Shown one piece after another: positions 1-22,020 of a stretch of 22,020 nt of DNA (the stretch's first letter is position 1; each line of letters starts with the position of its first letter). The stretch is from a virus. The DNA is taken from the IMG/VR virus record IMGVR_UViG_3300017763_000233, positions 1 through 22,020 of that record; one strand, given 5' to 3'. The notes below the pieces were generated by a model. That model was not told the DNA's origin and did no database searches. It was given only the letters and a program-made list of their open reading frames with translations. Both the position numbers and the translations under genes were made by a program.

Positions 1-60
1 AGGCACAATGATCACTTCAGGTGGAAGAACGGTAAAACGATCTTTCAGAGTGAAGGTTGA
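1..60 (+). CDS. C-terminal end of an upstream ORF, possibly the end of the HNH-like gene that starts at 21895
   Basis: Frame 1 is open from the first base to TGA at 58-60 and encodes 19 residues (RHNDHFRWKNGKTIFQSEG). No start codon is visible, so the gene begins before the window, or at the other end if the molecule is circular. The frame is the same as that of the partial ORF at 21895-22020, whose last residues are GGYG. In small phage HNH proteins a GYG is usually followed by a basic residue and a short strand ending in a GK turn, which this peptide could supply. The peptide alone has no catalytic motif. Function is inferred only from that possible junction. Confidence 0.4.
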   Translation, partial: RHNDHFRWKNGKTIFQSEG

Positions 61-68
61 AACAATAC

Positions 69-109
69 ATCTATAAAAATTTTTATTAGATGGCGGGTGA
101 ACTACACCC
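69..109 (+). promoter_or_regulatory. Palindrome and short hairpin upstream of the terminase genes
   Basis: Positions 69-91 form a near-perfect palindrome: ATCTA, then TAAAAATTTTTA, then TAGAT, with one extra T at 86. Immediately after it GGGTG (95-99) pairs with CACCC (105-109) around a 5-base loop. Together they fill the space between the upstream stop codon (60) and the small terminase Shine-Dalgarno (AAGGAG just before 132). They could be a weak terminator for the upstream gene, an mRNA leader structure, or part of a packaging site. Nothing in the sequence decides between these. Confidence 0.35.
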
Positions 110-131
110 ATAAAACAAAAAGGAGAGTAAA

Positions 132-596
132 ATGACTGACAAAGAGCAGGACCTAAGGATAGTCAATCCTGAAGCAATTGAATTGAAACCAACTGCATCA
201 GCAAAAGATATAATCAACACAAAAAAAGTAGAAGACAAAGATGTTGTTGTTGAAAACATAGACACAACCAGTCTACAAGCACCAAAGAACAAAGGTGGTA
301 GACCCAAAGTCAAGGTAGATACTAAAATTATAGAAAATATGGCATCAATACATTGCACAAACAAAGAAATAGCAGAAGTATTGAGCATAAGTGTAGACAC
401 ACTACAAAGGAATTTCCCGGATTTACTACAAAAAGGCAGAGCCAACGGAAAAGCCAAGTTGAGAAGGCTACAATGGCAGAAAGCAGAAGAAGGCAATCCC
501 ACTATGCTTATCTGGTTAGGTAAACAGATGTTGGATCAAAAAGAACAGCCAATCAGCAACGAAGACAATCAACCATTACCTTGGAAAGATGAATAA
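132..596 (+). CDS. terS: Small terminase subunit (TerS)
   Basis: 154 residues. The small terminase binds phage DNA at the packaging site and hands it to the large subunit. Residues 1-53 look disordered and charged. From about residue 55 comes GRPKVKVDTKIIENMASI, then a helix-turn-helix (TNKEIAEVLSISVDTLQRNF, about 76-95), then a basic segment with LRRLQWQKAEEGNPTMLIWL and GKQMLDQKE. This architecture is typical of phage small terminases. Start chosen for its AAGGAG site at the usual distance. It overlaps the large terminase by TAATG, so the two are probably translationally coupled. Identification rests on the HTH plus C-terminal motif and position before TerL. Confidence 0.88.
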   Translation: MTDKEQDLRIVNPEAIELKPTASAKDIINTKKVEDKDVVVENIDTTSLQAPKNKGGRPKVKVDTKIIENMASIHCTNKEIAEVLSISVDTLQRNFPDLLQKGRANGKAKLRRLQWQKAEEGNPTMLIWLGKQMLDQKEQPISNEDNQPLPWKDE

Positions 597-1849
597 TGCC
601 ATTGAGTGATGCACAACAACAGGTTGCAAAAAGCAACAAAAGATTCAGAGTGCTAGTGACAGGTAGACGATTTGGTAAAACGCATTTGGCAATCAGAGAA
701 TTGTGCAAAGCGGCCGCGGAACCCAATCAATTGGTTTGGTATGTGGCACCCAGTTACAGAATGGCACGTCAGATAGTATGGGACAAGTTGAAAAAGAAAT
801 TGATTGACCTTAATTGGGTAGTCAAGTATAATGAAACAGATTTGCATTTGATATTGAAGAATGGTAGCAAGATATGTCTAAGAGGTGCAGATCATTCAGA
901 CAGTTTAAGAGGTGTAGGAATAGATTTTTTGGTGTTAGATGAATGTGCAGACATAGACAAGAAGGCTTGGACAGAAGTCCTAAGACCCACACTGTCAGAC
1001 ACACAAGGATCAGCATTGTTCACAGGTACACCAAAAGGATTGGGTAATTGGTTGCACGACATATACATAAATGCTAGGACAGACCAAGAACATTGGGCCA
1101 GTTTCCAGTTCACAACACTGGATGGTGGACAAGTGCCACAAGATGAAATTGATCAGGCCCGTAAAGATCTAGATGACAGAACATACAGACAAGAATATAT
1201 GGCAAGTTTTGAAACATACTCAGGCCAAGTGTACTACAACTTTTCAGAATCAAACATAACACAGGCCTTTATGAGAACAAACACACAGGACATACCAGAC
1301 ACATTGTTGGTGGGATTGGACTTCAACATAGATCCAATGAGTGCTTGTATAGCCTTTAGACACAATGATCAGATCATAGTGTTTGATGAAATATCAATAT
1401 TTGGTTCAAACACAGATGAATTGGTACAAGAATTAAGGACAAGATATCCAAAAAAAAGAATAATCATATATCCAGATCCTGCATCAAGACAAAGAAAAAC
1501 ATCAGCAGGTGGTAGAACAGATTTAAGTATTTTACAGAATGCTGGCTTTGAAGTCAAAGTAAGGACCAGTCACACACCCATAAGAGACAGGGTCAATGCT
1601 GTGAATAGTGCATTGAAGAGTGCTGACGGCACAATAAGATTCAAAGTGCATCCAGCCTGTAAGAATGTGTTGAAGAGCCTGCAGAAACAGATATATAAAC
1701 CAGGCACATCAATACCAGACAACAATGAGAACCTATCGCATATGGCAGATGCAACCGGATATTTGATTGATTACATATATCCTGTAAAGAAAAAGACAAT
1801 AAATAACAATATTAATACAACTTGGTCTATGCCCACAATGACAAGATAA
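596..1849 (+). CDS. terL: Large terminase subunit (TerL), ATPase and nuclease
   Basis: 417 residues, full length for the family. The N-terminal ATPase drives DNA into the prohead: Walker A is GRRFGKT at residues 23-29, Walker B is LVLDE at 112-116, and the coupling motif is FTGTPKG at 142-148. The C-terminal half is the RNase H-like nuclease that cuts concatemers, with candidate metal-binding acidic residues in GLDFNIDP, IIIYPDPASR and the late SHMADATGYLIDYI segment. It begins inside the TerS stop codon and is followed ten bases later by the portal gene. No missing motif was seen. The packaging strategy (cos or pac) cannot be read from the protein. Confidence 0.95.
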   Translation: MPLSDAQQQVAKSNKRFRVLVTGRRFGKTHLAIRELCKAAAEPNQLVWYVAPSYRMARQIVWDKLKKKLIDLNWVVKYNETDLHLILKNGSKICLRGADHSDSLRGVGIDFLVLDECADIDKKAWTEVLRPTLSDTQGSALFTGTPKGLGNWLHDIYINARTDQEHWASFQFTTLDGGQVPQDEIDQARKDLDDRTYRQEYMASFETYSGQVYYNFSESNITQAFMRTNTQDIPDTLLVGLDFNIDPMSACIAFRHNDQIIVFDEISIFGSNTDELVQELRTRYPKKRIIIYPDPASRQRKTSAGGRTDLSILQNAGFEVKVRTSHTPIRDRVNAVNSALKSADGTIRFKVHPACKNVLKSLQKQIYKPGTSIPDNNENLSHMADATGYLIDYIYPVKKKTINNNINTTWSMPTMTR

Positions 1850-1859
1850 GGACAACAGA

Positions 1860-3410
1860 ATGGCAACAACATACGATGCTTTTGACACCAATTACAGAGT
1901 AGAATATTATGGTATTTCCGTACATCCGTACTGGAAACAAAATATCTCTCGTTGGTTATACTACTCTGATTCATATCAAGGTGGTAATGAGTACAGAGAA
2001 GGTAGATATCTAACCAAATACTTTTTAGAAACAGGTGACGACTACGAAAACAGAATCAAACAGACACCACTAGACAATCACTGCAAGAGTGTGGTTGAAA
2101 CTTACAACAGTTTTTTATTTAGAACACCACCAAAGAGAACATATGGATCAATTGACAATGAACCGTCATTGAATGCTTTCTTGTCAGACGCAGACCTAGA
2201 TGGTAGAAATTTTGACTCATTTATGAGAGATGTGGCAACACAGAGTTCAATATATGGTCACGTATGGGTTATGGTAGACAAACCCAACACACAGGTGGCA
2301 ACAAGGGCAGAAGAATTACAACAACAGATCAGACCATATCTTGTTATGTTCACACCGGAAAATGTGATCGACTGGTCATACACCAGAAGACCCAGTGGTG
2401 TGTATGAACTGACAATGATCAGAATATATGAAGGCAATGACGAAAAATATGGTTATTACAGAGAGATAACACCGGAAGCAAACACACTTTATAGAAAAAA
2501 AGGTGGTATATCAAACGCACAAGAAAAAGAAGAAATAGTAGAACAAACTGCTAACAGATTGGGCCAAGTGCCTTGCGTTCCTGTATATGCACAGAGATCA
2601 AAAGTAAAAGGTATTGGTATCAGTGACATTTCAGATGTTGCGGATATGCAAAGAAGCATATACAATGAATTGAGTGAACTGGAACAGATAGTTAGAATAT
2701 CAAACCACCCATCGCTAGTGAAAACATCAGACACACAAGCGGCGGCAGGTGCAGGTGCCATAATTGATCTACCAAATGACTTGGATGCAAATTTGAAACC
2801 TTATTTGTTAGAACCATCAGGTTCAGGCATAGACAACATATTGAGTTCATTGGGATCCAAAGCAGATGCGATCAACAGAATGGCCAACCTAGGCGGTACT
2901 AGAACAACAGCAAACAGAGTTATGAGTGGTGTTGCACTAGAAACTGAATTCCAAATATTGAATGCTAGACTATCAGAGAAAGCAGACCTGTTAGAACTTG
3001 CAGAAGAACAAATTTGGAGATTGTGGTCACTGTGGCAGAACAAAGTGTGGGACGGTATGATTGATTATCCAGACAACTTCTCGATACACGACAAATCAAA
3101 CACTATCGCACTATTGAAAGAAGCAAAGAGTACCAATCCAAACAATCCTAGGTTGATAGAAGAGATTGACAATATGTTGGCCGGTGCTTTGATCAAAGAT
3201 GAAGACAGGTTAGCGGAAGTTGTTGATGCACAACAGACACCAGTGTTGAATACTGAAATGCAACATCCGCCAATGACAACACCAGAAGATATGATTGCAC
3301 ATATGAGAGCGATGTTAGAACAGGGGTACACTAATGAACAGATTATGGAACTACATCCTGAGATATCTCAATTTTTCAGTAACCAAAATGGAGGAAATGA
3401 CGATGCATAA
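1860..3410 (+). CDS. Portal protein
   Basis: 516 residues. Portal proteins form the dodecameric ring at one capsid vertex through which DNA passes. Seen here: an N-terminal segment with aromatic-rich repeats (YGISVHPYWK, SRWLYYSDSYQGG), a central alpha/beta region with FLFRTPPKR and YGHVWVMVDKP, a long helical stretch with MSGVALETEFQILNARLSEK and LEEIWRLW-like residues typical of the portal stem and wing, and a Met/Gln-rich C-terminus with LEQGYTNEQIMELHPEI. Its place directly after TerL and before the scaffold and capsid genes supports the call. A weak AAGGA site precedes the ATG. The 3' end overlaps a 30-aa basic ORF. It resembles the DUF4055-type portals, but I cannot confirm the family. 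Confidence 0.85.
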   Translation: MATTYDAFDTNYRVEYYGISVHPYWKQNISRWLYYSDSYQGGNEYREGRYLTKYFLETGDDYENRIKQTPLDNHCKSVVETYNSFLFRTPPKRTYGSIDNEPSLNAFLSDADLDGRNFDSFMRDVATQSSIYGHVWVMVDKPNTQVATRAEELQQQIRPYLVMFTPENVIDWSYTRRPSGVYELTMIRIYEGNDEKYGYYREITPEANTLYRKKGGISNAQEKEEIVEQTANRLGQVPCVPVYAQRSKVKGIGISDISDVADMQRSIYNELSELEQIVRISNHPSLVKTSDTQAAAGAGAIIDLPNDLDANLKPYLLEPSGSGIDNILSSLGSKADAINRMANLGGTRTTANRVMSGVALETEFQILNARLSEKADLLELAEEQIWRLWSLWQNKVWDGMIDYPDNFSIHDKSNTIALLKEAKSTNPNNPRLIEEIDNMLAGALIKDEDRLAEVVDAQQTPVLNTEMQHPPMTTPEDMIAHMRAMLEQGYTNEQIMELHPEISQFFSNQNGGNDDA

Positions 3411-3495: not shown

Positions 3496-3497
3496 AG

Positions 3498-3875: not shown

Positions 3876-3931
3876 ATACAACAAACAGCATATTGCTGGA
3901 GTTATACTCACAACTCAAAAGGAGGAACACA

Positions 3932-4627
3932 ATGAGTGAATTGGAAAACAACACAAACACTGAGCCAACTCAGGCTCCTGCGGAAGATACAACAGTATCA
4001 AAAGCAGAATCAGAGGCAAAAACTTTTACACAAACTGACTTAGACAAGGTCGTAGCAGATAGAGTTGCAAGAGAACGAAGGAAATACGAAAAGAAGTATG
4101 ACGGCGTTGACATTGATCAATATCAAGACCTAGTTAACAAGGCAGAAAAGGAAAGACAGGCACAATTGAAAGCCAAAGGCCATTTTGAAGAACTGCTTAA
4201 AGAACAAGCAGAAAAGAAAGATGCCCAAATCAATCAATTGATGTCACAAGTGAAGAACATCAGAGTAGATGGTGCTTTGCTAGATACTGCTAGTAAATTT
4301 AAAGCGGTCAATCCGGGACAAGTGGCGACACTTATCAAGGACCAAGTCAAATTAAATGAAACTGGCGATGTTGAAATTGTCGATCCTAAAACTGGTCAAA
4401 CAAGATATAGAGATGATGGTAATCATTACACTATTGAAGATTTGACAAATGAATTTTTAACGGCTAATCCGCATTTTGTAGCCGCTACACCATCAGGTGC
4501 AGGCACTACAAGTAAAATCGGCGATGCTGGGAGTGGTGAAAAGTTGGATATAACAAAACTGGATATGTCAAAACCCGAAGATAGAAAGGCTTATGCCCAA
4601 TATCGTAAGATAAATGATATATCATAA
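3932..4627 (+). CDS. Capsid scaffolding protein
   Basis: 231 residues from the ATG at 3932. I prefer this start over the upstream in-frame ATG at 3893 because AAAGGAGG at about 3918-3925 sits at ideal distance. Scaffold proteins guide coat subunits into a prohead and then leave. The features fit: a disordered acidic N-terminus rich in Thr, Glu and Ala, a segment FTQTDLDKVVADRVARERRK that begins a long charged coiled coil to about residue 120, and a C-terminus with LDMSKPEDRKAYAQYRKIND resembling the coat-binding helical end of scaffolds. It lies 32 bases before the major capsid gene. A small inverted repeat (CAGCA-TAT-TGCTG, 3886-3898) lies in its 56-base leader. Confidence 0.8.
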   Translation: MSELENNTNTEPTQAPAEDTTVSKAESEAKTFTQTDLDKVVADRVARERRKYEKKYDGVDIDQYQDLVNKAEKERQAQLKAKGHFEELLKEQAEKKDAQINQLMSQVKNIRVDGALLDTASKFKAVNPGQVATLIKDQVKLNETGDVEIVDPKTGQTRYRDDGNHYTIEDLTNEFLTANPHFVAATPSGAGTTSKIGDAGSGEKLDITKLDMSKPEDRKAYAQYRKINDIS

Positions 4628-4659: not shown

Positions 4660-5514
4660 ATGGCAGACGAAATCAAAACGATTATAAGTGGAACTAGTTC
4701 ACTAGACCATTTAGTATCAAACATTGTTGCTGAAGCACAATTTGTTGCACAGGAACAATCAATTATGAGAAACCTTGTAAAAAACTTCACAGTACCAGCA
4801 AACTCTGGAAAAGTTTTACAAGTACCGATCTACGGTAACCCAACAGCAGGATCAGTAGCAGAAGCAGACGACCTATCACCAAATGCAATCACTTCATCAG
4901 AAGCATTGATTACATTAAGTGAAATTGGTTTAATGACTAATGTATCTGATATGGCTCTTAACCACTCATCTCAAAATGTAATCGCAGATGTGGGAAGACT
5001 TTTTGGAACTGCAATCGCAAAGAAAATGGATCAATTATTAATTGCCAACTTTGCAAACTTCTCTGAAGGCCAAGGTTCAGCGGCACAAGAATTAACAGTT
5101 GACGAGATGTTCAAAGCAGTAGCAAAATTATCTACAGCGGCGGCACCAGGACCATACTACGGTGTGTTCCATCCAAAAGTGATGTACCAAATCAAAAAAG
5201 GTTTGACTAATACTTTTGCAGGTGACAGATACAGTGAACTAGCCAATGAAGCAATGAGAACTGGTTATGTCGGAACAATCGCAGGTGTACAGATTTTCGA
5301 ATCTTCTAACATCACTGTTGATGGTTCAGATGACTCAGTAGGTGCTATCTTTAGCAGAGATGCTATTGCAATGGCTATGGGATCAGAGATCAAAATAGAA
5401 ACACAAAGAGATGTATCAGCAAGAGCCACAGAAGTTGTGGGTGTTGCCACATTCGGTACAGCCGAATTACACGACTCTTATGGTGTTAAATTAACAGCGG
5501 ACTCGGCTCTTTAA
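4660..5514 (+). CDS. Major capsid protein, HK97-fold type
   Basis: 284 residues. This is the main shell protein. Its position after the scaffold, its length, and the composition (Ala/Gly/Ser/Val-rich, no cysteine, no membrane segment) fit an HK97-fold coat. Recognisable elements are LQVPIYGNPTAGSVAEAD in the expected E-loop/N-arm region, SEIGLMTNVSDMAL followed by a long helix (the spine-helix position), PGPYYGVFHPKVMYQIKKGL, and a C-terminal strand-rich part with FGTAELHDSYGVKL. Leucine codons are mostly TTA, CTT and CTA, whereas neighbours prefer TTG, consistent with selection for high expression. A strong hairpin follows the stop codon. No protease cleavage site can be claimed. Confidence 0.88.
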   Translation: MADEIKTIISGTSSLDHLVSNIVAEAQFVAQEQSIMRNLVKNFTVPANSGKVLQVPIYGNPTAGSVAEADDLSPNAITSSEALITLSEIGLMTNVSDMALNHSSQNVIADVGRLFGTAIAKKMDQLLIANFANFSEGQGSAAQELTVDEMFKAVAKLSTAAAPGPYYGVFHPKVMYQIKKGLTNTFAGDRYSELANEAMRTGYVGTIAGVQIFESSNITVDGSDDSVGAIFSRDAIAMAMGSEIKIETQRDVSARATEVVGVATFGTAELHDSYGVKLTADSAL

Positions 5515-8068: not shown

Positions 8069-10366
8069 ATGGCTATTAGAGAACAGTTAATAATCGAAGG
8101 CAAGAACAGGACTGGTCGTGCTTTTGGTCAGGTTCAAAAAGATCTAGGCAAGATGGATGGTGCTATGAAAGGCATCATTGCCACTGCGGCCGGTGTGGTT
8201 GCCGCTTTGGGATTCCAGAGACTAGCCTCTAGTACCATAGACACAGTTAGAAAGTTCCAAGACCTAGGTGCTGTATTAAAAACAGTTGAAGGTGATGCGA
8301 TCAAAGCCGCAGAATCAATGGGTCTTATCAGAGAATTTACCAAAACCACAACATTCCAACTAGATGATGTAACCCAAGCATTCATAACACTTAGAAATGC
8401 TGGACTAAAACCTACAGAAGCCTTTATGACTGACATAGGTAACATTGCCGCTGGTATGGGTAAAAGAATTGATGACGTAGCCAAAGCAGTATTCAATGCC
8501 ACAACTGGTGAATTTGAAATGCTTAAACAACTGGGTATCAAAGTAAAAACAGAAGGTGACAAACTCACTGTGCTGTTCAGAGGCACGAGCCGTACTATTG
8601 CAAATGATGGTAAAGCCATCGTAGGAGTGATACAAGAGATATCACAATCAGATTTCAGTACAGGTTTGGCTGATAGTGCCAACACATTGACAGGTGCAAT
8701 TTCAAATATGAAAGATGCATCAGAAGAATTCCAAGTTGCCATAGGTGATGCAGGACTTACCGGTGAACTTACAAAATTCACAAGAGAGATAACAGCCACA
8801 ATCAACGGTTCATCAGAATTAAGTTTCCAAATAGGAACAGTGATGGCGAGTGCAGTGTCAGGCCTGAGAGCAGGCTTCCAATTTTTAGTGAAGAATGCTG
8901 ATGAAGTCAAAAACGCATTTGGAGCCATCGCCGCATTGGGTATGGCGGCTGTGATTGGTAGAATAACTATGGCAGTCAGAGCATTGACCATAGCGATAGC
9001 AACCAATCCATTGGGTGCATTGGCCACGGCGGCCGTTGCATTGATAGGTTATCTAAGTTTCAAAAATGGATTGGGTAAAACACTGGCACAGGTCAGAGCA
9101 GTGATAGAATTATTAGGACAAGCATTTAGTAAATTTGCACAGTTCATCAGAGACAAAGTTGGTGCAGTCATAAACAAATTAAAAGATGTGTTCTTGGCAT
9201 TTGTTCAATCAGCGATCAATGGATACAATGCATTGGCATCATTTATACCATTGATAGAAAAGTTCGAAGGTGATGCAAGTGATCTAACAGGTGTCATAGT
9301 TGAAATGGGCAAAGATGGCTTGGAGTATGCAGGTGGCAAAGTAGATGAATTAGCAGATGCACTGAAAAATGCAGTCCCACCGGGTGTGGAAGATGGCTAC
9401 AACAAAGTCAAACAAGTGATCATTGACACAGGCAATGAATATGACGTCACAAAAGAAAAAGCCAAGAAAGCATTTGAAGCCTCAAAGTTCTACAATGACA
9501 AGATCATACAGATAGCCAAACAAGGTGGCAACACCGAAGGTGGCACAGGCACAGTATCAGATCAAGGCCTAAGCAAAGAACAGAAAAAAATAGAAGAAGC
9601 ACTGAGCAAGAGAGTGCAAAAAATTATTGATTCGGCGAGAACAGAAACAGAAGTTCTAGAAGATCAACGAGACAAGGATCTAAGAGACCTTAGAGATTAT
9701 TATGGTACAAGGATAGCATTTGATGAAGAATATTTGCGATTGTATCAGAGTGTTCAAGACAAATTCAAGAGAGCAGAAGCAAAACAAAGAAAAAGAATGG
9801 TAGATGACCAATTCCAAATTATCAAAGATGGTAATATGGCAGAATTGGATCTAACAAATCTCACCAAAGATGAGATAACTGATATCACAAAGAAAACAGG
9901 CAGAGAAGCCTTAGATGCATTATCAGAACACAACAGGACAGCATTCAAAATAAACAAAGCATTGGCGATCAAAGATGCAATAATGAGTACTGCACAAGGT
10001 GTATCGAAAGCATTAAGTTATGGACCATTTGGTATACCATTGGCGATAGCAATTGGTGCCTTGGGTGCCGCTCAGATTGCCACGATAGCCAAACAACAAT
10101 ACGCCGGAAGAGCAATGGGTGGACCAGTTGGTGCAGGACAGAATTATCTTGTTGGTGAAAGAGGACCAGAAATATTTAGAGCACCAGCAGGTGGTGGTAT
10201 GATAGACAATGGTTCACGTGGATCAGGACATCCAATCAATATCAACTTCAATGTTGAAGCAATTGATGGTGCCAGTTTCCAAGACACACTGGCAGAAAAC
10301 AGATCAGCAATCATATCATTGGTAAACGAAGCAGTGAATGACTCAGGTAGAAGGAGCATAATATAA
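8069..10366 (+). CDS. Tape measure protein
   Basis: 765 residues, the largest gene. It sets tail length and is ejected with the DNA. Seen here: an N-terminal helical region starting with an RTGRAFGQVQKDLGKM segment, a first hydrophobic patch (IIATAAGVVAALGF, about 36-50), a membrane-like region at about 281-330 (FGAIAALGMAAVIGR, then NPLGALATAAVALIGYL), charged coiled coil at about 500-600, a third hydrophobic patch at about 650-675, and the hallmark C-terminal GGPVGAGQNYLVGERGPEIF near residue 695. At about 1.5 angstroms per residue the tail would be roughly 115 nm. No peptidase or lysozyme domain is apparent. It starts directly after the GT stop codon. Confidence 0.93.
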   Translation: MAIREQLIIEGKNRTGRAFGQVQKDLGKMDGAMKGIIATAAGVVAALGFQRLASSTIDTVRKFQDLGAVLKTVEGDAIKAAESMGLIREFTKTTTFQLDDVTQAFITLRNAGLKPTEAFMTDIGNIAAGMGKRIDDVAKAVFNATTGEFEMLKQLGIKVKTEGDKLTVLFRGTSRTIANDGKAIVGVIQEISQSDFSTGLADSANTLTGAISNMKDASEEFQVAIGDAGLTGELTKFTREITATINGSSELSFQIGTVMASAVSGLRAGFQFLVKNADEVKNAFGAIAALGMAAVIGRITMAVRALTIAIATNPLGALATAAVALIGYLSFKNGLGKTLAQVRAVIELLGQAFSKFAQFIRDKVGAVINKLKDVFLAFVQSAINGYNALASFIPLIEKFEGDASDLTGVIVEMGKDGLEYAGGKVDELADALKNAVPPGVEDGYNKVKQVIIDTGNEYDVTKEKAKKAFEASKFYNDKIIQIAKQGGNTEGGTGTVSDQGLSKEQKKIEEALSKRVQKIIDSARTETEVLEDQRDKDLRDLRDYYGTRIAFDEEYLRLYQSVQDKFKRAEAKQRKRMVDDQFQIIKDGNMAELDLTNLTKDEITDITKKTGREALDALSEHNRTAFKINKALAIKDAIMSTAQGVSKALSYGPFGIPLAIAIGALGAAQIATIAKQQYAGRAMGGPVGAGQNYLVGERGPEIFRAPAGGGMIDNGSRGSGHPININFNVEAIDGASFQDTLAENRSAIISLVNEAVNDSGRRSII

Positions 10367-10980: not shown

Positions 10981-11640
10981 ATGGCAAGATTAGGATCAGG
11001 ATTTTATGCAAACGCCAGCACAACTGCTCTGTTGAACAGAGATGCTGTGAATTGTTTCCATACTGTGGATCTGTTGATAGCAGATTCAGGTGTGAGCCTA
11101 AGCAACCTATTTTTAACAGACAATTTCTTTCCTGTGAGTTTCCAAAGCATAACACAGAGTGGATCACAAGATTATTCACCTTTGGGATCATTGATAGGAA
11201 TAACAGCCATACAAGAGAGCACCAGCATAAGGGTAAATGCTTTAACAGTAACCATATCAGGTGTGTCAGACAGTTTGGTCCACAAGATATTGAACACAGA
11301 TGAAATCATAAACAAGAGAGTTGCCATATACAGAACATTCATAGTGCCTGGCACAGCAGATCACACACCAGTGACTTCAGGCGGCACACAGAACACATAC
11401 ACATTGTATGATGGCACCATAAAAGATTTCAGTATAGAAGAAGGTGGTGATGACGCTAAAATTTCAATAAGTGTTGCATCACATTGGTCAGACTTTGATA
11501 AGAAGATTGGTAGGTTCACAAACGCAACCAGCCAACAGACAACCAAACAATACAACACAACAACAAAATTTTCAACTGATCAAGGTTTTAACTATGCCAG
11601 TCAGATGATTGGTGACATACAATGGGGACCAAAAGCATAA
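10981..11640 (+). CDS. Tail hub protein, DUF2163-like
   Basis: 219 residues. Proteins of this kind sit between the distal tail protein and the J-like tip. Supporting features are VDLLIADSGVSLSNLFLTD, ITAIQESTSIRVNALTVTIS, a strand with INKRVAIYRTFI, the LYDGTIKDFSIEE segment, and near the end a FDKKIGRFTNATSQQ motif, followed by STDQGFNYASQM and GDIQWGP. These last features recall the DUF2163/Phage_BR0599 tail proteins and gene transfer agent counterparts. The end overlaps the J-like gene by TAATG. The cysteine peptidase gene that often follows in related clusters is absent. Confidence 0.7.
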   Translation: MARLGSGFYANASTTALLNRDAVNCFHTVDLLIADSGVSLSNLFLTDNFFPVSFQSITQSGSQDYSPLGSLIGITAIQESTSIRVNALTVTISGVSDSLVHKILNTDEIINKRVAIYRTFIVPGTADHTPVTSGGTQNTYTLYDGTIKDFSIEEGGDDAKISISVASHWSDFDKKIGRFTNATSQQTTKQYNTTTKFSTDQGFNYASQMIGDIQWGPKA

Positions 11641-13802
11641 TGATTGGTTGGATAAGAAAACAATTTAACAAGATAGCCAAATGGTGGTTGGACAGACAGG
11701 CCCCACCAGGTGAATTCATTGCTTACATCAATGAACAAGAAGAACAACTGTTAAAAAAATATGGTGGTGCTGGTGTAGAATGGCAAGACACTGGTATCAA
11801 AAGTTTCTTCTTTAAAAAAATATTTAGGGCAGTCAAAAGAGTAGTAAAAAGTGTAGTAAGAGTTGTGAAAAAAGTGGTCACAGCGGTTGTAAAACCCATT
11901 CTCAAGATAGCAGATGGTTTTATGGGACTTTTTGGTATGAGTTTTGATATGCCTGAAATGCCAAGTCCAGAAAACTTTGACGATGTTCAACAGGGTATAT
12001 TGGTAAACAAACAATCCAATGTGGCCAATATACCTATAGTGTACGGAACAAGGAAAGTTGGTGGAACTAGGGTGTTTGTGAGTGGTGCAGGTGACAACAG
12101 CAAGTATCTATATGTTTGTTTGGTGATAGCAGAAGGTGAGATTGACTCATACACGAGAATGTTCATCAATGATGAAGAACAGAGCATAGATTCATTTGGC
12201 ACAGGTGCAACAAGATCAATATTGAGTTCAACACCAGATGGATCAACAAGTTCATACTACACAAACAATCAATCCAGAGCAAAATTTCAATTCTTCACAG
12301 GAACAGAAACACAGACAGCAAGTTCATTGTTGAAAGAACATCCAGATTGGAATGACAGTCATAGATTACAAGGTGTGGCTTACGTGGCCTGCAGATTTGA
12401 ATGGGTCAAAGCAGAATTTGATTCAAAAGGCAATCAAACAACCAGTAATCCTTGGTCAGGTGTTCCAAACATACAACTTGTGGTCAAAGGTAGAAAAGTT
12501 TTACCTCGTACCAGTTATAGTGCCAGCGATGACACTGCAACTGACACCAGCACATATGAATCAACAACAGGTTCATTTGTATTCTCAGACAATCCAGCAG
12601 ATTGTTTGATGGACTATCTGAGGAATCCCAGATATGGTAAAGGACTAAACAACAACAGAATTTCTTTCGCTGACTTTAGGGTGGCGGCTGATAATTGCAA
12701 CATATCAAAAGCATATGGCGGCACTTTAGGCAGTGCAGTCTTCTTGACCTGCAACACAGTGGTATCAACCAGTGACAGTGTGTTGAACAACACCAAAAAA
12801 CTGTTACAGAGTTGTAGAGGTTTTATGCCATACACAGATGGCAAGTACAGATTGAAGATAGAAGCCAATGAATCAACAACAGGAATACAAGAAATAACAG
12901 ACGATCACATCGTGTCAAGCATAACAGTTGCAAGTGTAGACAAGAACAGCAGATACAATCAGTCCAAAATTACGTTCGCAAATGAAAAGAAAGATTTTGA
13001 ATCAGACACAGTGATCTATCAAGACTCAGGCTACTTGACCAAAGATGGTGGTGAAGATCTAATTCTTCAAGTGTCTGCACCATCAATAACGAGGCGCGAG
13101 AGGGCTACTTATTATGGCAAGTATCTGGTTGATAGATCTAGGAAAAGTTTGACCTGCAGTTTCACAATGACCAATGAAGGACAAAATTTAAAACCAGGTG
13201 ACCTTGTCAAACTGACACACAGGTTCAAAAGAACAGGCGAAGAGACGGGCACATATGAATATATGTTCAATGCCCAAGTTTTCAGGGTGTTAGAAGTGTC
13301 ATTGAACTATGACAACACAGTGTCAGTGGATCTTGTTGAATATGACAGCACACTGGACACGATAACAGCATTGACAGTCGATCCCACAGAGGACAACAGT
13401 AGTCAACCAACACCACCCAGCAACAATCCAGGTGATCAGGACAAAGCCAACAACAACGCAAGGGCAAATGTCAAAACCACAGTCAGCGGACAAAGGGCAG
13501 GTGTCATATTCACAACACAGAACACAGATGCATTGGCAGACAAATTGCACATTGAATTGAGATTGAATGGTGGTGGTATCACAGCAACCACAATACCTAA
13601 TTTTGCAGACAGCATAGATTACTTTGTGTTCCAATCAGGTGGACAAGATTTCAAACCAGGGGACAATATTAAATATAAATTATACACAAGAAGAGGATCT
13701 GGAACTCATATGAGTTTCTTTCAAAGTGGTTCAGTGACATTTGGCGGATCAAACAGTTCAAGCACATTCAGTCAAAGTTATAGCAACCAAGGATGGACGT
13801 AA
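11640..13802 (+). CDS. Tail tip protein, J-like (host-specificity / central tip)
   Basis: 720 residues from the ATG at 11640 (TAATG with the gene before); an in-frame ATG at 11622 would add six residues and overlap more. The protein closes the distal end of the tail. After an N-terminal charged region there is a striking amphipathic basic stretch at about 62-88 (VKRVVKSVVRVVKKVV). Next come VNKQSNVANIPIVYGTRKVG and YVCLVIAEGEIDSYTRMF, both hallmarks of J-like tips. A central region follows with LMDYLRNPRYGKGLN, and a late one with RRERATYYGKYLVDRSRK and LKPGDLVKLTHRF. A Pro/Asn/Asp linker (PTPPSNNPGDQDKANNN) leads to a C-terminal beta domain. Its end lies four bases before the next gene. Confidence 0.85.
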   Translation: MIGWIRKQFNKIAKWWLDRQAPPGEFIAYINEQEEQLLKKYGGAGVEWQDTGIKSFFFKKIFRAVKRVVKSVVRVVKKVVTAVVKPILKIADGFMGLFGMSFDMPEMPSPENFDDVQQGILVNKQSNVANIPIVYGTRKVGGTRVFVSGAGDNSKYLYVCLVIAEGEIDSYTRMFINDEEQSIDSFGTGATRSILSSTPDGSTSSYYTNNQSRAKFQFFTGTETQTASSLLKEHPDWNDSHRLQGVAYVACRFEWVKAEFDSKGNQTTSNPWSGVPNIQLVVKGRKVLPRTSYSASDDTATDTSTYESTTGSFVFSDNPADCLMDYLRNPRYGKGLNNNRISFADFRVAADNCNISKAYGGTLGSAVFLTCNTVVSTSDSVLNNTKKLLQSCRGFMPYTDGKYRLKIEANESTTGIQEITDDHIVSSITVASVDKNSRYNQSKITFANEKKDFESDTVIYQDSGYLTKDGGEDLILQVSAPSITRRERATYYGKYLVDRSRKSLTCSFTMTNEGQNLKPGDLVKLTHRFKRTGEETGTYEYMFNAQVFRVLEVSLNYDNTVSVDLVEYDSTLDTITALTVDPTEDNSSQPTPPSNNPGDQDKANNNARANVKTTVSGQRAGVIFTTQNTDALADKLHIELRLNGGGITATTIPNFADSIDYFVFQSGGQDFKPGDNIKYKLYTRRGSGTHMSFFQSGSVTFGGSNSSSTFSQSYSNQGWT

Positions 13803-15412: not shown

Positions 15413-16248
15413 TGGCACAACCTGGTTATATATTGGCAACAGGTGGTGCAAGAAGAACAATTGATGTTAATTCAATTAGTTTCAATGGTTCAACCAGTCA
15501 CATAAGATACGAAAACAGTTTTGTAGGAAGTTTTGGTACCGGTGGTAGATTTGTGGTATCATTTTGGTGTAAACCGGATATGGGTGCAAATGAAACCCAC
15601 ACAATAATTGAAGCAAATGAAGGAACTTTACCTGGTAATGCATCTATACAACAGATTGAATTAGAGAGTAATTCAAGTAGCAACATAAGATTAAAGATAC
15701 ATCATTTCAACGGCAACAGTTCTAACACCGGTGAGCGTCTAGAATTTATATCAGCGTACGGCAAGGTCACAAACAATGCTTGGAACCATATTGCTTACAG
15801 CGGTGGTGGTAGTGCCGTGCCAACAGCAGGATTGTTTTCATTAATGATCAATGATGCACACGAATCATCAACAACAGATGGTTCTAGACTGTCGTTGTTT
15901 CCTGGAAACACTGATCACGAAACGCATATAGGTGCAAAGTTTAATGATGATGAAAGTTCATCATCTAACAGATATTCAGGTTGTCTGGCAGAGTTCTATG
16001 TACACCAAGGTATCAATCAATTTTATGATTTTAGTGAGGCCTCTAGTAGAAGAAAATTTATTAGTGGATCAAAGCAACCAGTGACACTACCACCATTTAC
16101 ATCAGTTGAAGGATCAGGTGTTTCAGGTATGTATCTGCGTGGTACATCATCGACTTGGGCCAACACAGCCGGCGCAGATGTAGGAACAACAATGGGCACA
16201 CAAACTTTAAGCAACATAACCAATTGTGCGGATTCGCCAAGTGATTAA
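15412..16248 (+). CDS. LamG-like (concanavalin A-like) lectin domain protein, candidate receptor-binding protein
   Basis: 278 residues. Residues 20-215 carry the LamG/laminin-G jelly roll: ISFNGSTSHIRYENSF, GGRFVVSFWCKPDMGANET, then IRLKIHHFNGNSSNTGERL, NNAWNHIAYSGGGS and a late GCLAEFYVHQGINQFY, all typical strand positions of this fold (SxSxW strand, WNHIA strand). The C-terminal 60 residues hold KQPVTLPPFTSVEGSGVSGM and end TNCADSPSD. Such domains bind glycans or surface proteins. Its site among the tail tip genes suggests receptor recognition, or assembly as a surface decoration. It overlaps the previous stop by TAATG; the next gene is 42 bases away. Confidence 0.78.
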   Translation: MAQPGYILATGGARRTIDVNSISFNGSTSHIRYENSFVGSFGTGGRFVVSFWCKPDMGANETHTIIEANEGTLPGNASIQQIELESNSSSNIRLKIHHFNGNSSNTGERLEFISAYGKVTNNAWNHIAYSGGGSAVPTAGLFSLMINDAHESSTTDGSRLSLFPGNTDHETHIGAKFNDDESSSSNRYSGCLAEFYVHQGINQFYDFSEASSRRKFISGSKQPVTLPPFTSVEGSGVSGMYLRGTSSTWANTAGADVGTTMGTQTLSNITNCADSPSD

Positions 16249-16822: not shown

Positions 16823-16823
16823 T

Positions 16824-18094: not shown

Positions 18095-18112
18095 AGTTTG
18101 GTTCCTTGTGCT

Positions 18113-18141: not shown

Positions 18142-18149
18142 GAAAGATA

Positions 18150-18206: not shown

Positions 18207-18259
18207 CTTTAAGGAGCATATCCGACATCAGACACTACTTGTAAATGTCTGTCTTGGTG

Positions 18260-18287: not shown

Positions 18288-18385
18288 GCTTTTAGGAAGG
18301 AGCCTACCAAGTATGGCGTCTATACTAAAAATAACTATTGCAAGTTATTATGTATATTTATACTATTTCTTGTGGGGTATTGTCA

Positions 18386-18532: not shown

Positions 18533-18663
18533 TCTTGCAATGAAGTGAACAACAACTGTTGATCAAGTGTTCTTGGTTTGACCAATTTCAATCTATTGTA
18601 CAATGCAACCAGTTCTTGCAATTTTATTTTAGAGAAATCATATGGATATGGAGCCTGTGACAT
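18505..18663 (-). CDS. Small hypothetical protein coupled to the lipoprotein gene
   Basis: 52 residues from the ATG at 18663, which overlaps the lipoprotein stop by TAATG, the same coupling seen elsewhere in this genome; the longer start at 18699 would overlap more. The protein reads MSQAPYPYDFSKIKLQELVA and then LYNRLKLVKPRTLDQQLLFT, ending with a helical LQDHLWDIYRL. It appears soluble and helical. There is no known family. Coupling to the lipoprotein suggests a shared role, perhaps at the envelope. Confidence 0.58.
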   Translation of the reverse strand: MSQAPYPYDFSKIKLQELVALYNRLKLVKPRTLDQQLLFTSLQDHLWDIYRL

Positions 18664-18968
18664 TATTTGACCACACTGTGTCCACGACCTTCTAGGCATC
18701 GTTGGACTCTGGTTTTGTAATCACTCTGTTTCCTAGGTATCACACCCAAGGTCACAGTTGATGCATATATGTTGATGGCCTGTTGCCAAGTGTCCCAACT
18801 TCTCACAGTGTGTTCATCTGCAAGTTCTCTACAATGTTGTACGTCATTGGTTATTTCTCTGGCTTTGTCTTCATCATATGTGCCTGATCTACCAGCGGTA
18901 TCAATCACTGGATTGTAAGCACAGGCTGTCATTGATAACAACAACAGTACTGGTATTATTTTCTTCAT
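18663..18968 (-). CDS. Lipoprotein, shortened relative of glycine-zipper outer membrane lipoproteins
   Basis: 101 residues. MKKIIPVLLLLSMTAC is a lipoprotein signal peptide with the lipidated cysteine at position 16. The mature part starts YNPVIDTAGRSGTYDEDKAR, continues DVQHCRELADEH, and ends RVQRCLEGRGHSVV. The PVIDT and CLxGRG segments recall bacterial glycine-zipper lipoproteins, but the glycine-rich middle is absent here. AAGGAAAGG precedes the start and a near-consensus promoter is present. Likely sited at the outer or inner membrane of a Gram-negative host. Plausible roles are superinfection exclusion or a spanin-like lysis function; neither is shown by the sequence. Confidence 0.82.
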   Translation of the reverse strand: MKKIIPVLLLLSMTACAYNPVIDTAGRSGTYDEDKAREITNDVQHCRELADEHTVRSWDTWQQAINIYASTVTLGVIPRKQSDYKTRVQRCLEGRGHSVVK

Positions 18969-18994
18969 ACTATGCCTTTCCTTGTTATAGTGTT

Positions 18995-19023
18995 ATTATA
19001 CATTATTTTCCAATTTTAGTCAA
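18995..19023 (-). promoter_or_regulatory. Near-consensus sigma-70 promoter for the lipoprotein operon
   Basis: On the minus strand TTGACT (19023-19018) and TATAAT (19000-18995) are 17 bases apart, eleven of twelve consensus bases. The start site would be near 18988, giving a leader of about 20 bases with a strong AAGGAAAGG site. The -35 begins one base after the hairpin that ends the upstream ParB-like transcript. Confidence 0.82.
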
Positions 19024-19024
19024 T

Positions 19025-19048
19025 GGGGCAATAGTTTTCTACTGCCCC
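19025..19048 (-). terminator. Hairpin after the ParB-like gene, near copy of the capsid hairpin
   Basis: On the minus strand GGGGCAGTAG (19048-19039) pairs with CTATTGCCCC (19034-19025) around AAAA; the stem has one G-U pair in the same place as the hairpin at 5550-5575. It lies 25 bases after the ParB-like stop codon and has no U-run. Terminator or 3'-end stabiliser. Confidence 0.6.
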
Positions 19049-19073
19049 TAGCAATTGACCAATCTTTAAAGGA

Positions 19074-19961
19074 TTATTCTAGTTGACCCGCTTTGGCATA
19101 AACTTCACCAATAACTTTTTTGGCAAAAGGGGCTCGCTTGTTGTTGATCTTGCACCAATCATACCAATCACAGTACAAACCATATGCCACTGATATGCCA
19201 TAGTGGTTATCTTTTCTCAACTGTGGGTAACTCATTTTGTTCTGTTCAACAGTTTTGGACTTGTCTTCTAGGAATGACACAAAGTCTGTTTCATACTTGT
19301 CCCAATCCATTAAGTCTTTGTCAATGAATTTGATCAAATTGATCAAACCTTCTAGAAACATCACGTTGTAATGTCCATCAAGGTTATAAACTTCGTTGAT
19401 CAGTTCACAGGCCTTCTTGGTTCTGTTTTGATCTTTTTTCCAAAACGATTGCCACTTGGCTATCTTGATCGTTTTGCCTTTCTTAAGGCCCACTGTGTTG
19501 TCAGCACTTGTGACTCTGGCCTTACACTCTTTCAGGCCTTTCTCCAGTTCTAGAGCACCTACTTCTTTGCCTAAAACCTGAGCAACAAATTTTTCTTCGT
19601 TGTTCACTGCTTTACTGCAAGTGCCATTTAATCTGTGAAACAGTTGTGCTGACTGTTCAACAGTCCATTCTTTGCTATTACCATTTAAAATGATAGCAGG
19701 CACTTCAGTCACATCTGGCAAATATTTCTTGACCAGATACAGTCTGTGTCCACCATCTACCACTTCTAGTTTGCCATCTGGATATCTCACACAAGAGATT
19801 GCACCAAAAAGGTTCCAGTCAAATACTCCTACTTCACGAATATAACTGTCTGCTTTGGTTGTGTATATTTTTCTTTGTGCTTGGACATTGGGTGTGTCTA
19901 CTGACACATTTTCAGCACTTTGAATAGGTGTGCCTTCGACCTTTATTTCTTGTTCATTCAT
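19074..19961 (-). CDS. ParB/Srx-fold protein with DGGHR motif
   Basis: 295 residues from the ATG at 19961, chosen for the AAGGAG six bases before it; the in-frame ATG at 20039 lies inside the promoter. The N-terminal part (about 35-125) is a ParB/sulfiredoxin-type domain: a substrate-like region with YIREVGVFDWNLFGAI, then EVVDGGHRLYLVKKY with the core DGGHR at 69-73, and VPAIILNG. In ParB-like proteins this motif binds nucleotide or phosphate. The rest is helical and Lys-rich with no clear HTH, so DNA binding cannot be claimed. Being alone under its own promoter next to a divergent control region, it may regulate or partition, or modify proteins or nucleotides. Confidence 0.72.
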   Translation of the reverse strand: MNEQEIKVEGTPIQSAENVSVDTPNVQAQRKIYTTKADSYIREVGVFDWNLFGAISCVRYPDGKLEVVDGGHRLYLVKKYLPDVTEVPAIILNGNSKEWTVEQSAQLFHRLNGTCSKAVNNEEKFVAQVLGKEVGALELEKGLKECKARVTSADNTVGLKKGKTIKIAKWQSFWKKDQNRTKKACELINEVYNLDGHYNVMFLEGLINLIKFIDKDLMDWDKYETDFVSFLEDKSKTVEQNKMSYPQLRKDNHYGISVAYGLYCDWYDWCKINNKRAPFAKKVIGEVYAKAGQLE

Positions 19962-20027
19962 CTTTTTCTCCTTTGTTAGATGTGTTATTATTACAACCAA
20001 GAAACTACTTGTCTTGATTGTCTTTAC

Positions 20028-20056
20028 AGTATAACACAATCTCCTGCAAGTGTCAA
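20028..20056 (-). promoter_or_regulatory. Leftward promoter for the ParB-like gene
   Basis: On the minus strand TTGACA (20056-20051) and TATACT (20033-20028) are 17 bases apart, eleven of twelve consensus bases. Transcription would start near 20021 and give a leader of about 60 bases to the ATG at 19961. It is one half of the divergent control region. Confidence 0.83.
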
Positions 20057-20058
20057 TA

Positions 20059-20080
20059 GGTCAATTTTGCCAACTTGACC
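20059..20080. promoter_or_regulatory. Operator-like inverted repeat between divergent promoters
   Basis: GGTCAA (20059-20064) and TTGACC (20075-20080) form a perfect 6-bp inverted repeat with a 10-base spacer, about two helical turns end to end. It sits between the two -35 boxes (20051-20056 and 20090-20095), which are themselves TGTCAA and TTGACA. A dimeric regulator bound here could control both promoters. Confidence 0.55.
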
Positions 20081-20089
20081 TGGAAAAAG

Positions 20090-20119
20090 TTGACAAAACC
20101 ATCAAAAAGATGCTATTAT
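20090..20119 (+). promoter_or_regulatory. Rightward promoter for the 20173 operon
   Basis: TTGACA (20090-20095) and TATTAT (20114-20119) are 18 bases apart. Transcription would begin near 20126, inside the left arm of the inverted repeat at 20124-20151. It is the only good rightward promoter I found in the window and would serve 20173-21898 and whatever follows. Confidence 0.75.
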
Positions 20120-20123
20120 AAGG

Positions 20124-20151
20124 GTATATTTAGAAATTTCGCTAAATATAC
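20124..20151 (+). promoter_or_regulatory. 10-bp inverted repeat at the rightward transcription start
   Basis: GTATATTTAG (20124-20133) and CTAAATATAC (20142-20151) are perfect inverted complements with an 8-base spacer. It covers the expected start site of the rightward promoter, so it may be a repressor operator. It could also form a hairpin at the extreme 5' end of the mRNA that protects it from decay. Confidence 0.6.
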
Positions 20152-20172
20152 AAACAACAAGGAGAATGCCAA

Positions 20173-20931
20173 ATGCAAAACATCACTGAAGCAGTTGCGG
20201 ATTTCCTAGATCAACAGGACAAGTTGGTTGAAAAGGACACCCGGAACTATAATAACAATAATAAAGATAATAAAGATAATAAAAAAATAATCAATTATAA
20301 GCAAACGGGTAAACGACTTTCTTTAAATGAAGTCGCTCCGCTCTCTGTTGGCACAGATATTTCTGCCAAGGAAGAGCAAGGTAGGGATCTCTCCAAAAAA
20401 TGGAGGACCGTAAAACTAGATCTTTTCAACAACACTAAAAATCCCAACAAACCATATGATTACACATTGAAGGTCAGCATATACCTATACCAACAATGCA
20501 AGGAGAACAACTGGGACAGCAAAAACCCAATAAATTTATCTGCCAAGTTCAATGACACCAGTTTAGATTCATTCAACATAGGCATTGTGAAAAGTGATCC
20601 ACACTATAGAGAAGCAAGACAGTTCAGAGATGACATATACGTGGATGCAAACCAATTGGGCATAGAACATATGAGTTTGAACAAGTTCTACATACCCAGC
20701 AAGAACAAAAAAATCAAAAACAAAAGCATAAAGAACTTCTCAGGCCTTTTGATAAGAGACCCCAACACACACAGGGTGGTGATATTCAAAGGACAAGAAA
20801 GATATCAATATGAATTGAGCAATACAGGATTGACAACCAAACAAAGACAAGTAGGCATAATCGGAAGTTGTGTTGTAAGGGCAGAAGACGGCCTGAAAAC
20901 ATCACAACAAGATGCCAACGATTTCTTATAG
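20173..20931 (+). CDS. Unrecognised protein with Asn/Lys-rich N-terminal tract, first gene of the rightward operon
   Basis: 252 residues. The start is preceded by AAGGAG at nine bases. Residues 1-22 are helical (MQNITEAVADFLDQQDKLVE), residues 25-40 form an Asn/Lys/Asp run encoded by 9-base repeats, then come KRLSLNEVAPLSVGTDI and a charged folded part: WRTVKLDLFNNTKNPNKPYD, LKVSIYLYQQCKENNWDSKN, EARQFRDDIYVDANQLGIEH, and a late FSGLLIRDPNTHRVVIFKGQ. It ends VVRAEDGLKTSQQDANDFL. No family is recognised. Its promoter-proximal position suggests an early or replication role. The lambda O gene, which carries the origin within itself, is a loose parallel. Confidence 0.72.
   Translation: MQNITEAVADFLDQQDKLVEKDTRNYNNNNKDNKDNKKIINYKQTGKRLSLNEVAPLSVGTDISAKEEQGRDLSKKWRTVKLDLFNNTKNPNKPYDYTLKVSIYLYQQCKENNWDSKNPINLSAKFNDTSLDSFNIGIVKSDPHYREARQFRDDIYVDANQLGIEHMSLNKFYIPSKNKKIKNKSIKNFSGLLIRDPNTHRVVIFKGQERYQYELSNTGLTTKQRQVGIIGSCVVRAEDGLKTSQQDANDFL
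20258..20284 (+). repeat. Three tandem 9-base AT-rich repeats
   Basis: The unit ATAATAAAG occurs at 20258-20266 and 20267-20275, with a third copy ending in A instead of G at 20276-20284. They lie in a stretch of nearly pure A/T at about 20248-20300. They keep the reading frame and encode the Asn/Lys/Asp tract of the gene. They may be iterons or an unwinding element of an origin, or a simple slippage product. Confidence 0.6.
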
Positions 20932-20939
20932 GAGACACA

Positions 20940-21278
20940 ATGAAGAACAAACAAGCACAGATCAACGCCAACATACAGTGGCCAGACAACATATGGGTCT
21001 ACAAGCGAGTGCCCAAAGGTCCATACAGGAAATGCAATGAGAACAAACTCAAGTACACAGAACACTATGACATCAGATTGGTGCCCAGTGATCACAGATG
21101 GGGATTGAGGCAGAAAGGTTGGAAGATACATCCAGACCAAGATCTACCACCGGAGATATTGAACTGGAGACCAGCGGTCAAACCCAGATTGAAACCTGCT
21201 ACTGAAACAACAATGCAACCTATGATAAGAACAAAAACCAAAGCCACAGTCAAACACAAACAAGGACAGACACAATGA
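20940..21278 (+). CDS. Unrecognised basic protein
   Basis: 112 residues from the ATG at 20940, with AGGAGA five bases before it that overlaps the previous stop; an in-frame ATG at 20868 would run far into the upstream gene. It begins MKNKQAQINANIQWPDNIWV, continues YKRVPKGPYRKCNENKLKYT and RWGLRQKGWKIHPDQDLPPE, and ends in a Lys/Thr/Pro-rich tail (TETTMQPMIRTKTKATVKHK). The basic charge and tail suggest nucleic-acid binding. Start and stop overlap both neighbours, so the three genes are cotranslated. No family is known to me. Confidence 0.65.
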   Translation: MKNKQAQINANIQWPDNIWVYKRVPKGPYRKCNENKLKYTEHYDIRLVPSDHRWGLRQKGWKIHPDQDLPPEILNWRPAVKPRLKPATETTMQPMIRTKTKATVKHKQGQTQ

Positions 21279-21898
21279 TACACTTTCCGTACAAAGTAAA
21301 AAACACAGGAGCCAACACAACTTATGTAGAACCAATCGATCAAAAAGATCTAGATAACCTATGTGACACACTGCACACAGGATACAGCAGGTTGGTAGAA
21401 ATGGCCATAGACAACAAAGAGATATGCAAACAGAGATGTGTGCCAGAACAGGGATTGAACAGAGTCAAAATCAGCAAACCAACCAAGATAGCATTGAAAA
21501 AATGGTTTGGACAAAAACATCCTTCGCTGTCGGTGAATCCAAATCCCAAGAACATAACAGGATTGAAAGGACAGACTTTCTTGAGATTCATCAATGGTAA
21601 TCTAAACAAATTATACAGGGTCAAAAACAAAAAAGAAGATCTATCTGAAGAGTTGTTGGCACAATACAACAAGATGATCAATTTGATTGAACAATATATC
21701 GCTAGAGAATGGAACAAGCAAGATCAAGCAATAATGCAATCAAAATTTACCCAAAAACAGATTGACTTTGAATTGAATCAGATGTTTAAATTTGGTAATT
21801 TCTTGGACACACTGAAAATTGATGCTTACAACCAAATAACAAGAGCAAACAACAACAAAAACAAACAACTCACAGACACCGGCTTGTTTTCTAAATGA
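21275..21898 (+). CDS. Unrecognised helical protein
   Basis: 207 residues. It begins MIHFPYKVKNTGANTTYVEP, continues LDNLCDTLHTGYSRLVEMAI, then KISKPTKIALKKWFGQKHPS, and the second half is helical and Lys/Gln/Asn-rich (NKMINLIEQYIAREWNKQDQ, FELNQMFKFGNFLDTLKIDA). ATGA overlaps link it to the gene before and to the HNH-like ORF after. A replication-associated or DNA-binding role is possible from context only. There is no helicase Walker motif and no polymerase motif. Confidence 0.66.
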   Translation: MIHFPYKVKNTGANTTYVEPIDQKDLDNLCDTLHTGYSRLVEMAIDNKEICKQRCVPEQGLNRVKISKPTKIALKKWFGQKHPSLSVNPNPKNITGLKGQTFLRFINGNLNKLYRVKNKKEDLSEELLAQYNKMINLIEQYIAREWNKQDQAIMQSKFTQKQIDFELNQMFKFGNFLDTLKIDAYNQITRANNNKNKQLTDTGLFSK

Positions 21899-22020
21899 AG
21901 TTGATCAAAGATCCTGATCAAACCCTTTGGTTGATATGGCATCTGATGAGCAAGTGTGAAATAGATAAAAAAAATGACAGTTGCTGGGAATGGAGAGGTA
22001 GATACTCAGGGGGATATGGA
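21895..22020 (+). CDS. HNH-like protein, N-terminal 42 residues, cut by the window end
   Basis: Open from the ATG at 21895 (overlapping the previous stop as ATGA) to the last base. The sequence MKLIKDPDQTLWLIWHLMSK is followed by CEIDKKNDSCWEWRGRYSGG and YG. The segment CWEWRG...GGYG is the usual N-terminal signature of small phage HNH proteins (CW.W.G...GYG), whose catalytic His-Asn-His core lies further on and is not visible here. HNH genes often lie right before the terminases, where the nuclease can aid packaging. If the molecule is circular, the gene would continue at base 1 and end at 60, giving a 61-residue protein without an HNH core. Otherwise it simply runs off the window. Confidence 0.7.
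   Translation, partial: MKLIKDPDQTLWLIWHLMSKCEIDKKNDSCWEWRGRYSGGYG

What the first reader, a model, noticed from the sequence alone, without database searches (positions are those of the whole stretch)
1..22020. AGCT, CATG and GCWGC appear to be completely absent from the window
I read every GCT, ATG and GCAG/GCTG in the plus strand by eye. GCT is common but always preceded by T, G or C, never A. ATG is very common but always preceded by A, T or G, never C. GCAG and GCTG are common and followed by A, G or T, never C. AGCT and CATG are palindromes, and GCAGC and GCTGC are each other's complements, so both strands are covered. At this base composition AGCT and CATG should each occur tens of times and GCWGC around twenty. 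All other 4-base palindromes I checked (GATC, GTAC, TCGA, GGCC, CCGG, CGCG, GCGC, ACGT, TGCA, CTAG) are present. Ala-Ala pairs seem to be written GCG GCC or GCC GCA rather than GCA GCN, as expected if GCAGC is being avoided at the protein-coding level. The simplest reading is long exposure to host restriction enzymes that cut these three words (AluI-, NlaIII- and TseI/BbvI-like specificities). No methylase is visible in the phage.
Basis: partly seen in the sequence, partly recalled or inferred. Interest (0 to 1): 0.78.

Follow-up and report, generated by a model that had tools for sequence, protein, structure and literature searches.

The report
Phage stripped of three restriction sites
This aquatic bacterial-virus fragment has lost every copy of three short DNA words that known bacterial restriction enzymes cut (AGCT, CATG, GCAGC/GCTGC); its relatives each lack a different set of such words, as expected if past hosts' DNA-cutting defences weeded them out.

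Summary
In 22,020 bases AGCT, CATG and GCWGC occur 0 times, against Markov expectations of 42.5, 93.7 and 23; AGCT and CATG are the only absent 4-mers. Shuffling synonymous codons still predicts 55, 45 and 25, so this is not protein content or codon bias. The closest relative (L001, 20% DNA divergence) has the same three gaps, so they have been actively maintained. Other contigs from L001's IMG sample have the words, which rules out a library artefact.

The window is part of a siphovirus related to lake phage DSL-LC06 and pelagiphage HTVC026P. Of 31 contigs of at least 15 kb in this clade, 29 have fully or nearly lost one or more words. The words form a shared vocabulary (AGCT, CATG, GTAC, CTAG, TGCA, GCGC, ACGT, YCGR, GCWGC, ACWGT, AGCC) that switches repeatedly along the terminase tree. 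Palindromes are lost about 40 times more often than other 4-mers, which points to Type II restriction enzymes. Unrelated phages isolated on one SAR11 strain lack different words, so sets follow phage lineage, not isolation host. No phage methylase or nuclease explains the sets.

Verdict: restriction-site avoidance, a known kind. Unexplained: elimination of non-palindromic AGCC, and heavy avoidance in phages of SAR11, reported to lack R-M.

The parts
1..22020 (.). Whole fragment: complete absence of AGCT (AluI-type), CATG (NlaIII-type) and GCWGC (TseI-type) on both strands
132..596 (+). Terminase small subunit (PHROG 309)
   Evidence: E 1.1e-9
596..1849 (+). Terminase large subunit; 91% identical to L001, 59% to DSL-LC06 and 54% to HTVC026P
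1860..3410 (+). Portal protein (SPP1 gp6-like)
3893..4627 (+). Probable head scaffolding protein
   Evidence: One search finds a scaffolding PHROG among window ORFs; position just before the capsid gene, as
4660..5514 (+). Major capsid protein
   Evidence: PF25209, PF05065; relatives
8069..10366 (+). Tape measure protein
   Evidence: PF20155, below the family cut-off; size and position as
11622..13802 (+). Central tail / host-recognition protein (J-like)
19074..20039 (-). 321-aa protein of unknown function; a DGGHR motif suggests a ParB-like domain (read by eye)
   Evidence: only a weak PHROG of unknown function; no methylase or nuclease match
13094..13097 (.). One of two remaining GCGC sites (expected 16)
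16172..16175 (.). Second remaining GCGC site

Best explanation
The window is a fragment of a tailed phage that has been purged of three Type II restriction recognition words by natural selection. Each unprotected site gives a restriction enzyme in a host a chance to cut incoming DNA. Synonymous mutations that remove a site are therefore favoured and mutations that create one are removed, until none remain. Shown here: complete absence, selection at synonymous level, maintenance since divergence from L001, lineage-specific sets in the family, bias towards palindromes, and no phage gene that explains the sets. Inferred: that the agents are host restriction enzymes with AGCT, CATG and GCWGC specificity, and that they belong to a pool of hosts met over evolutionary time rather than to one strain.
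For: Zero counts against three expectations. L001 shares the gaps: with 1,589 substitutions, 12.7 AGCT, 18.2 CATG and 2.7 GCWGC should have arisen by chance, and none exist in either intact sequence. Lineage-specific, near all-or-none sets in the family; 29 of 31 contigs of 15 kb or more have at least one eliminated word. Palindromic 4-mers eliminated in 194 of 2,390 tests vs 44 of 21,965 for non-palindromic ones. Degeneracy is of enzyme type: GCWGC but never GCSGC, and CCGG+TCGA+CCGA mostly together as YCGR. In G061 the five remaining TGCA sites all lie beyond the part alignable with its ~91% sister, as if newly imported. AGCT and GCWGC are methylated motifs in aquatic prokaryotes (PMC6329791). 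Site elimination is a documented phage strategy, mainly against orthodox Type II systems (PMC6286503).
Against: No host is known and no cognate restriction enzyme was found. Relatives infect SAR11, reported to lack R-M, and phages of one strain differ in their sets, so the pressure cannot come from the isolation host alone. Some eliminated words in relatives are non-palindromic 4-mers (AGCC in DSL-LC06; ACGG, CACG, CGAG in the unrelated SAR11 phage HTVC106P), unlike ordinary Type II sites.
Confidence: 0.83

Rival explanations
1. The phage (outside this fragment) encodes its own sequence-specific nucleases that attack host DNA, and its genome lacks the target words because it has no methylase to protect itself.
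For: DSL-LC06 and 18 relatives carry a small gene annotated PacI-like in DSL-LC06, upstream of the terminase, a region missing from the window. Twelve of the 19 carriers have eliminated GTAC and three are GTAC-depleted; five clade contigs with over 7 kb of upstream sequence and no copy have GTAC.
Against: Carriers G052, G060 and G063 keep GTAC although their proteins resemble those of GTAC-free phages closely. No gene cluster tracks any word. Phages lack up to about ten words. Intermediate states with a few remaining sites exist, which a self-cutting phage should not survive. The protein matches no Pfam family and no solved structure.
Confidence: 0.06
2. A host defence other than classical Type II restriction (Type IV, nicking, BREX-like or phosphorothioate-based) selects against these words.
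For: Relatives eliminate YCGR, listed as a Type IV site (PMC6286503), and the non-palindromic AGCC.
Against: The window's own three words are ordinary Type II sites, and palindromes dominate strongly in the family. Type I, IIG and III sites are not, or only rarely, avoided by phages.
Confidence: 0.08
3. Compositional, codon-usage or mutational bias, or chance.
For: CpG-containing words are generally rare in the window.
Against: Markov, synonymous-shuffle and half-site expectations all give tens of sites; words of similar make-up are common (GATC 124, TGCA 127, GCSGC 32).
Confidence: 0.01
4. Artefact of library preparation, assembly or sampling.
For: Single uncultured contig.
Against: L001, L055 and L136 come from one IMG sample (3300030116): L001 lacks AGCT and CATG, L055 has 77 and 39, L136 has 84 AGCT. 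The isolate DSL-LC06 shows the same kind of gap (AGCC 0).
Confidence: 0.01

Closest known systems
Restriction-site avoidance in non-temperate dsDNA phages (Rusinov et al. 2018, PMC6286503)
   Same: Near-complete elimination of short, mainly palindromic Type II sites with expected counts well above 15
   Different: In that survey about one tenth of viral genomes show (almost) complete elimination; in this clade 29 of 31 long contigs do, with up to about ten words and a shared vocabulary. The two figures use different word lists and criteria, so the contrast is rough
Phage DSL-LC06 (OR003941, Dishui Lake)
   Same: Terminase family, gene order, elimination of a word
   Different: Eliminates only AGCC/GGCT (0 vs 115), not the window's words
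Pelagibacter phages HTVC026P, HTVC111P, HTVC112P, HTVC202P
   Same: Terminase about 54% identical, same head-tail layout; HTVC026P and HTVC111P lack GCWGC and HTVC202P nearly so
   Different: 31% GC; avoid 5-15 mostly 5- and 6-base words; AGCT and CATG not eliminated
GANTC bias in pelagiphages (PMC9516812)
   Same: Motif avoidance in phages of hosts without identified R-M; authors propose past or related hosts
   Different: One motif, tied to the host's GANTC methylation mark; GANTC is not eliminated in the window

Membership tests
Restriction-site avoidance (site elimination) | Observed/expected below 0.1 with expectation of at least 15 | tested here: met
   0/42.5, 0/93.7, 0/23
Restriction-site avoidance (site elimination) | Not explained by amino-acid or codon content | tested here: met
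   Synonymous shuffle
[quoted passage not shown]
   AGCT and GCWGC listed as REBASE motifs and TseI named for GCWGC; AGCT = AluI and CATG = NlaIII from general knowledge
Restriction-site avoidance (site elimination) | Host, or strains of its species, encode the cognate systems | not testable with these tools
   Host unknown; genome scan with the capsid found one distant phage contig in a Pseudomonadales MAG
Restriction-site avoidance (site elimination) | Non-temperate lifestyle | tested here: inconclusive
   No integrase or repressor named in the fragment, but it is incomplete
Phage nuclease with self-avoidance | Nuclease gene in the phage | tested here: inconclusive
   None found in the window; the region upstream of the terminase is not in the fragment
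Phage nuclease with self-avoidance | Gene presence tracks the eliminated word in relatives | tested here: not met
HTVC026P / DSL-LC06-type siphoviruses | Homologous terminase and capsid and the same head-tail gene order | tested here: met

The most novel reading that the evidence does not exclude
This phage family carries a readable record of host defences: each lineage's missing words list sequence-specific cutters it has met. The list includes specificities that may be undescribed (non-palindromic AGCC/GGCT, missing in DSL-LC06 and 17 relatives) and cutters acting on phages of SAR11, a host group reported to have no R-M.
Probability: 0.35. Interest if true: 0.75.

Novelty: new member of a known kind. 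Interest (0 to 1): 0.5.

Why it matters
Phages that have erased restriction sites show which cutters their hosts used. A family in which nearly every member has erased a different subset of a common word list could be used to predict host defences and host links for uncultured phages, and offers natural pairs for measuring how fast sites are gained and lost. It also sharpens an open question: SAR11 is reported to lack restriction-modification, yet its phages avoid many restriction sites, with different sets on one host strain.

Tried and rejected
Phage methylase: none in the window; C5 methylases absent from 44 relatives, Dam-type from 20, N4/N6 type in only 3 of 20. PacI-like nuclease as cause: suggestive link with GTAC, rejected because close homologues occur in phages that keep GTAC. 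Gene-word association over 44 contigs: no gene tracks a word, though many contigs are fragments. Host search by capsid protein: nothing useful. Relatives of the right-end protein 20173-20931: none. DSL-LC06 nuclease as a viral-contig query: none. Bipartite or longer palindromes in the window: no further eliminated word of that kind beyond those containing CATG. The AGCT counts of 1 and 2 come from joining sequence across alignment gaps; the true counts are 0. A literature search found no report of AGCC/GGCT as a restriction site; this is a limited open-access library.

Full report
Check of the observation. An exact count finds no AGCT, CATG, GCAGC or GCTGC in the window. Maximal-order Markov expectations are 42.5, 93.7 and 23.1. 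AGCT and CATG are the only absent 4-mers. A stricter null keeps every protein and the pool of codons and only reshuffles synonymous codons; it still predicts 54.8, 44.6 and 24.9 sites in the coding part. The gap is exactly GCWGC: GCCGC/GCGGC is over-represented in the same test. Interrupted palindromes and longer sites show nothing further.

What the window is. The window is a whole IMG/VR virus record of 22,020 bases, probably a fragment. It carries terminase, portal, scaffold, capsid, tape-measure and tail genes and a few unknown proteins. Its terminase is closest to L001 (91%), then DSL-LC06 (59%) and Pelagibacter phages (54%). No methylase, nuclease or defence gene was recognised (one PADLOC match at E 0.012 is too weak to use).

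Maintenance. L001 covers 8.2 kb and has the same three gaps, 0/16, 0/34 and 0/10. The two sequences differ at 1,589 of 8,077 aligned positions. If substitutions ignored the words, 12.7 AGCT, 18.2 CATG and 2.7 GCWGC should have arisen. None did. The avoidance is therefore not a frozen relic; it has been enforced in both lineages since they split. Library or assembly artefacts are excluded, because other contigs from the same IMG sample as L001 have normal AGCT counts.

The family. Eighty relatives of DSL-LC06 and 160 found with the window's proteins were examined. The DSL-LC06 and window clade uses a common vocabulary of eliminated words: AGCT, CATG, GTAC, CTAG, TGCA, GCGC, ACGT, YCGR, GCWGC, ACWGT, AGCC, and rarely CTNAG, GTWAC, GGCC and GATC. 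CCGG, TCGA and CCGA mostly vanish together, which is what a YCGR specificity predicts; GCWGC vanishes but GCSGC never does. Of 31 contigs of at least 15 kb, 29 have at least one eliminated word (observed at most 10% of expected), against about one tenth of viral genomes in a published survey (PMC6286503; this count); the word lists differ, so the contrast is rough. On a terminase tree of 82 rows the state of AGCT changes at least 8 times, CATG 6, GCWGC 12 and GTAC 13. Close sisters tend to share sets. Intermediate states exist. In G061 the five remaining TGCA sites (142 expected in all) all lie at 25.9-28.8 kb, past the end of the alignment with its ~91% sister G063, as expected for newly imported DNA; a methylase gene lies there too.

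Agent. Across 197 loci, palindromic 4-mers are eliminated in 194 of 2,390 tests and non-palindromic ones in 44 of 21,965, and 5-mers with palindromic flanks in 128 of 4,133 against 108 of 63,916. The loci are related to one another, so these are not independent tests, but the contrast is about 40-fold. This is the signature of symmetric Type II enzymes. AGCT and GCWGC are known methylated motifs in lake prokaryotes (PMC6329791).

Which host? In relatives with known hosts the set does not follow the isolation strain. On SAR11 strain HTCC1062, HTVC026P avoids ten or more words, HTVC008M avoids TCGA, CASTG and others, HTVC019P avoids GATC, GGCC, GCGC and others, and HTVC023P avoids none; HTVC008M and HTVC023P were read over 45 kb, not whole. 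Pelagibacterales MAGs are reported to have no R-M systems (PMC9516812). The sets are better read as a record of many hosts met by each phage lineage. Whether the window's host is related to SAR11 is unknown.

Rival: phage-made nucleases. The clade often carries a small gene, annotated PacI-like in DSL-LC06, upstream of the terminase, a stretch not included in the window. Twelve of 19 carriers lack GTAC. But carriers with closely similar proteins keep GTAC, no gene cluster tracks any word, and one nuclease cannot explain up to ten words. This rival is kept at low probability.

Loose end. DSL-LC06, an isolate, and 17 related contigs lack the non-palindromic AGCC/GGCT: 0 on each strand in DSL-LC06, with 95 expected after synonymous shuffling, while AGCT and GGCC are normal there. 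No restriction enzyme for this word came up in the papers searched.

Verdict. The mechanism is an established one, restriction-site avoidance; the specific enzymes and host remain inferred.

Noticed in passing
L082 (DSL-LC06) 1-29811; also G067, G068, G083, G056, G071: The non-palindromic word AGCC/GGCT is completely absent (in DSL-LC06 0 vs 95-115 expected) while AGCT and GGCC occur; a possible undescribed cutter specificity.
   Followed up: partly
G061 25943-28899 (L304/L305): All five remaining TGCA sites (142 expected) sit in a terminal segment beyond the alignment with the sister phage G063; that segment also carries an N4/N6 methylase gene (28291-28899).
   Followed up: partly
L330 (HTVC106P, 28 kb of 36.9 kb): Three non-palindromic 4-mers are absent: ACGG 0/13, CACG 0/19, CGAG 0/22.
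   Followed up: no
L193 (HTVC103P, 45 kb of 54 kb): GATC 0/132 and CASTG 0/43 in a phage of the SAR11 strain HTCC7211.
   Followed up: no
G003 (L090) and G028 (L196/L197): About ten words, mostly 4-base palindromes, are eliminated or nearly so in one contig.
   Followed up: partly
DSL-LC06-type contigs, e.g. G058 28649-29008, G063 28037-28510: Conserved small protein annotated PacI-like in DSL-LC06; the DSL-LC06 copy has no Pfam or PDB match; weak association with GTAC loss.
   Followed up: partly
window 1-22020: GATC is over-represented against synonymous shuffling (112 vs 62).
   Followed up: no
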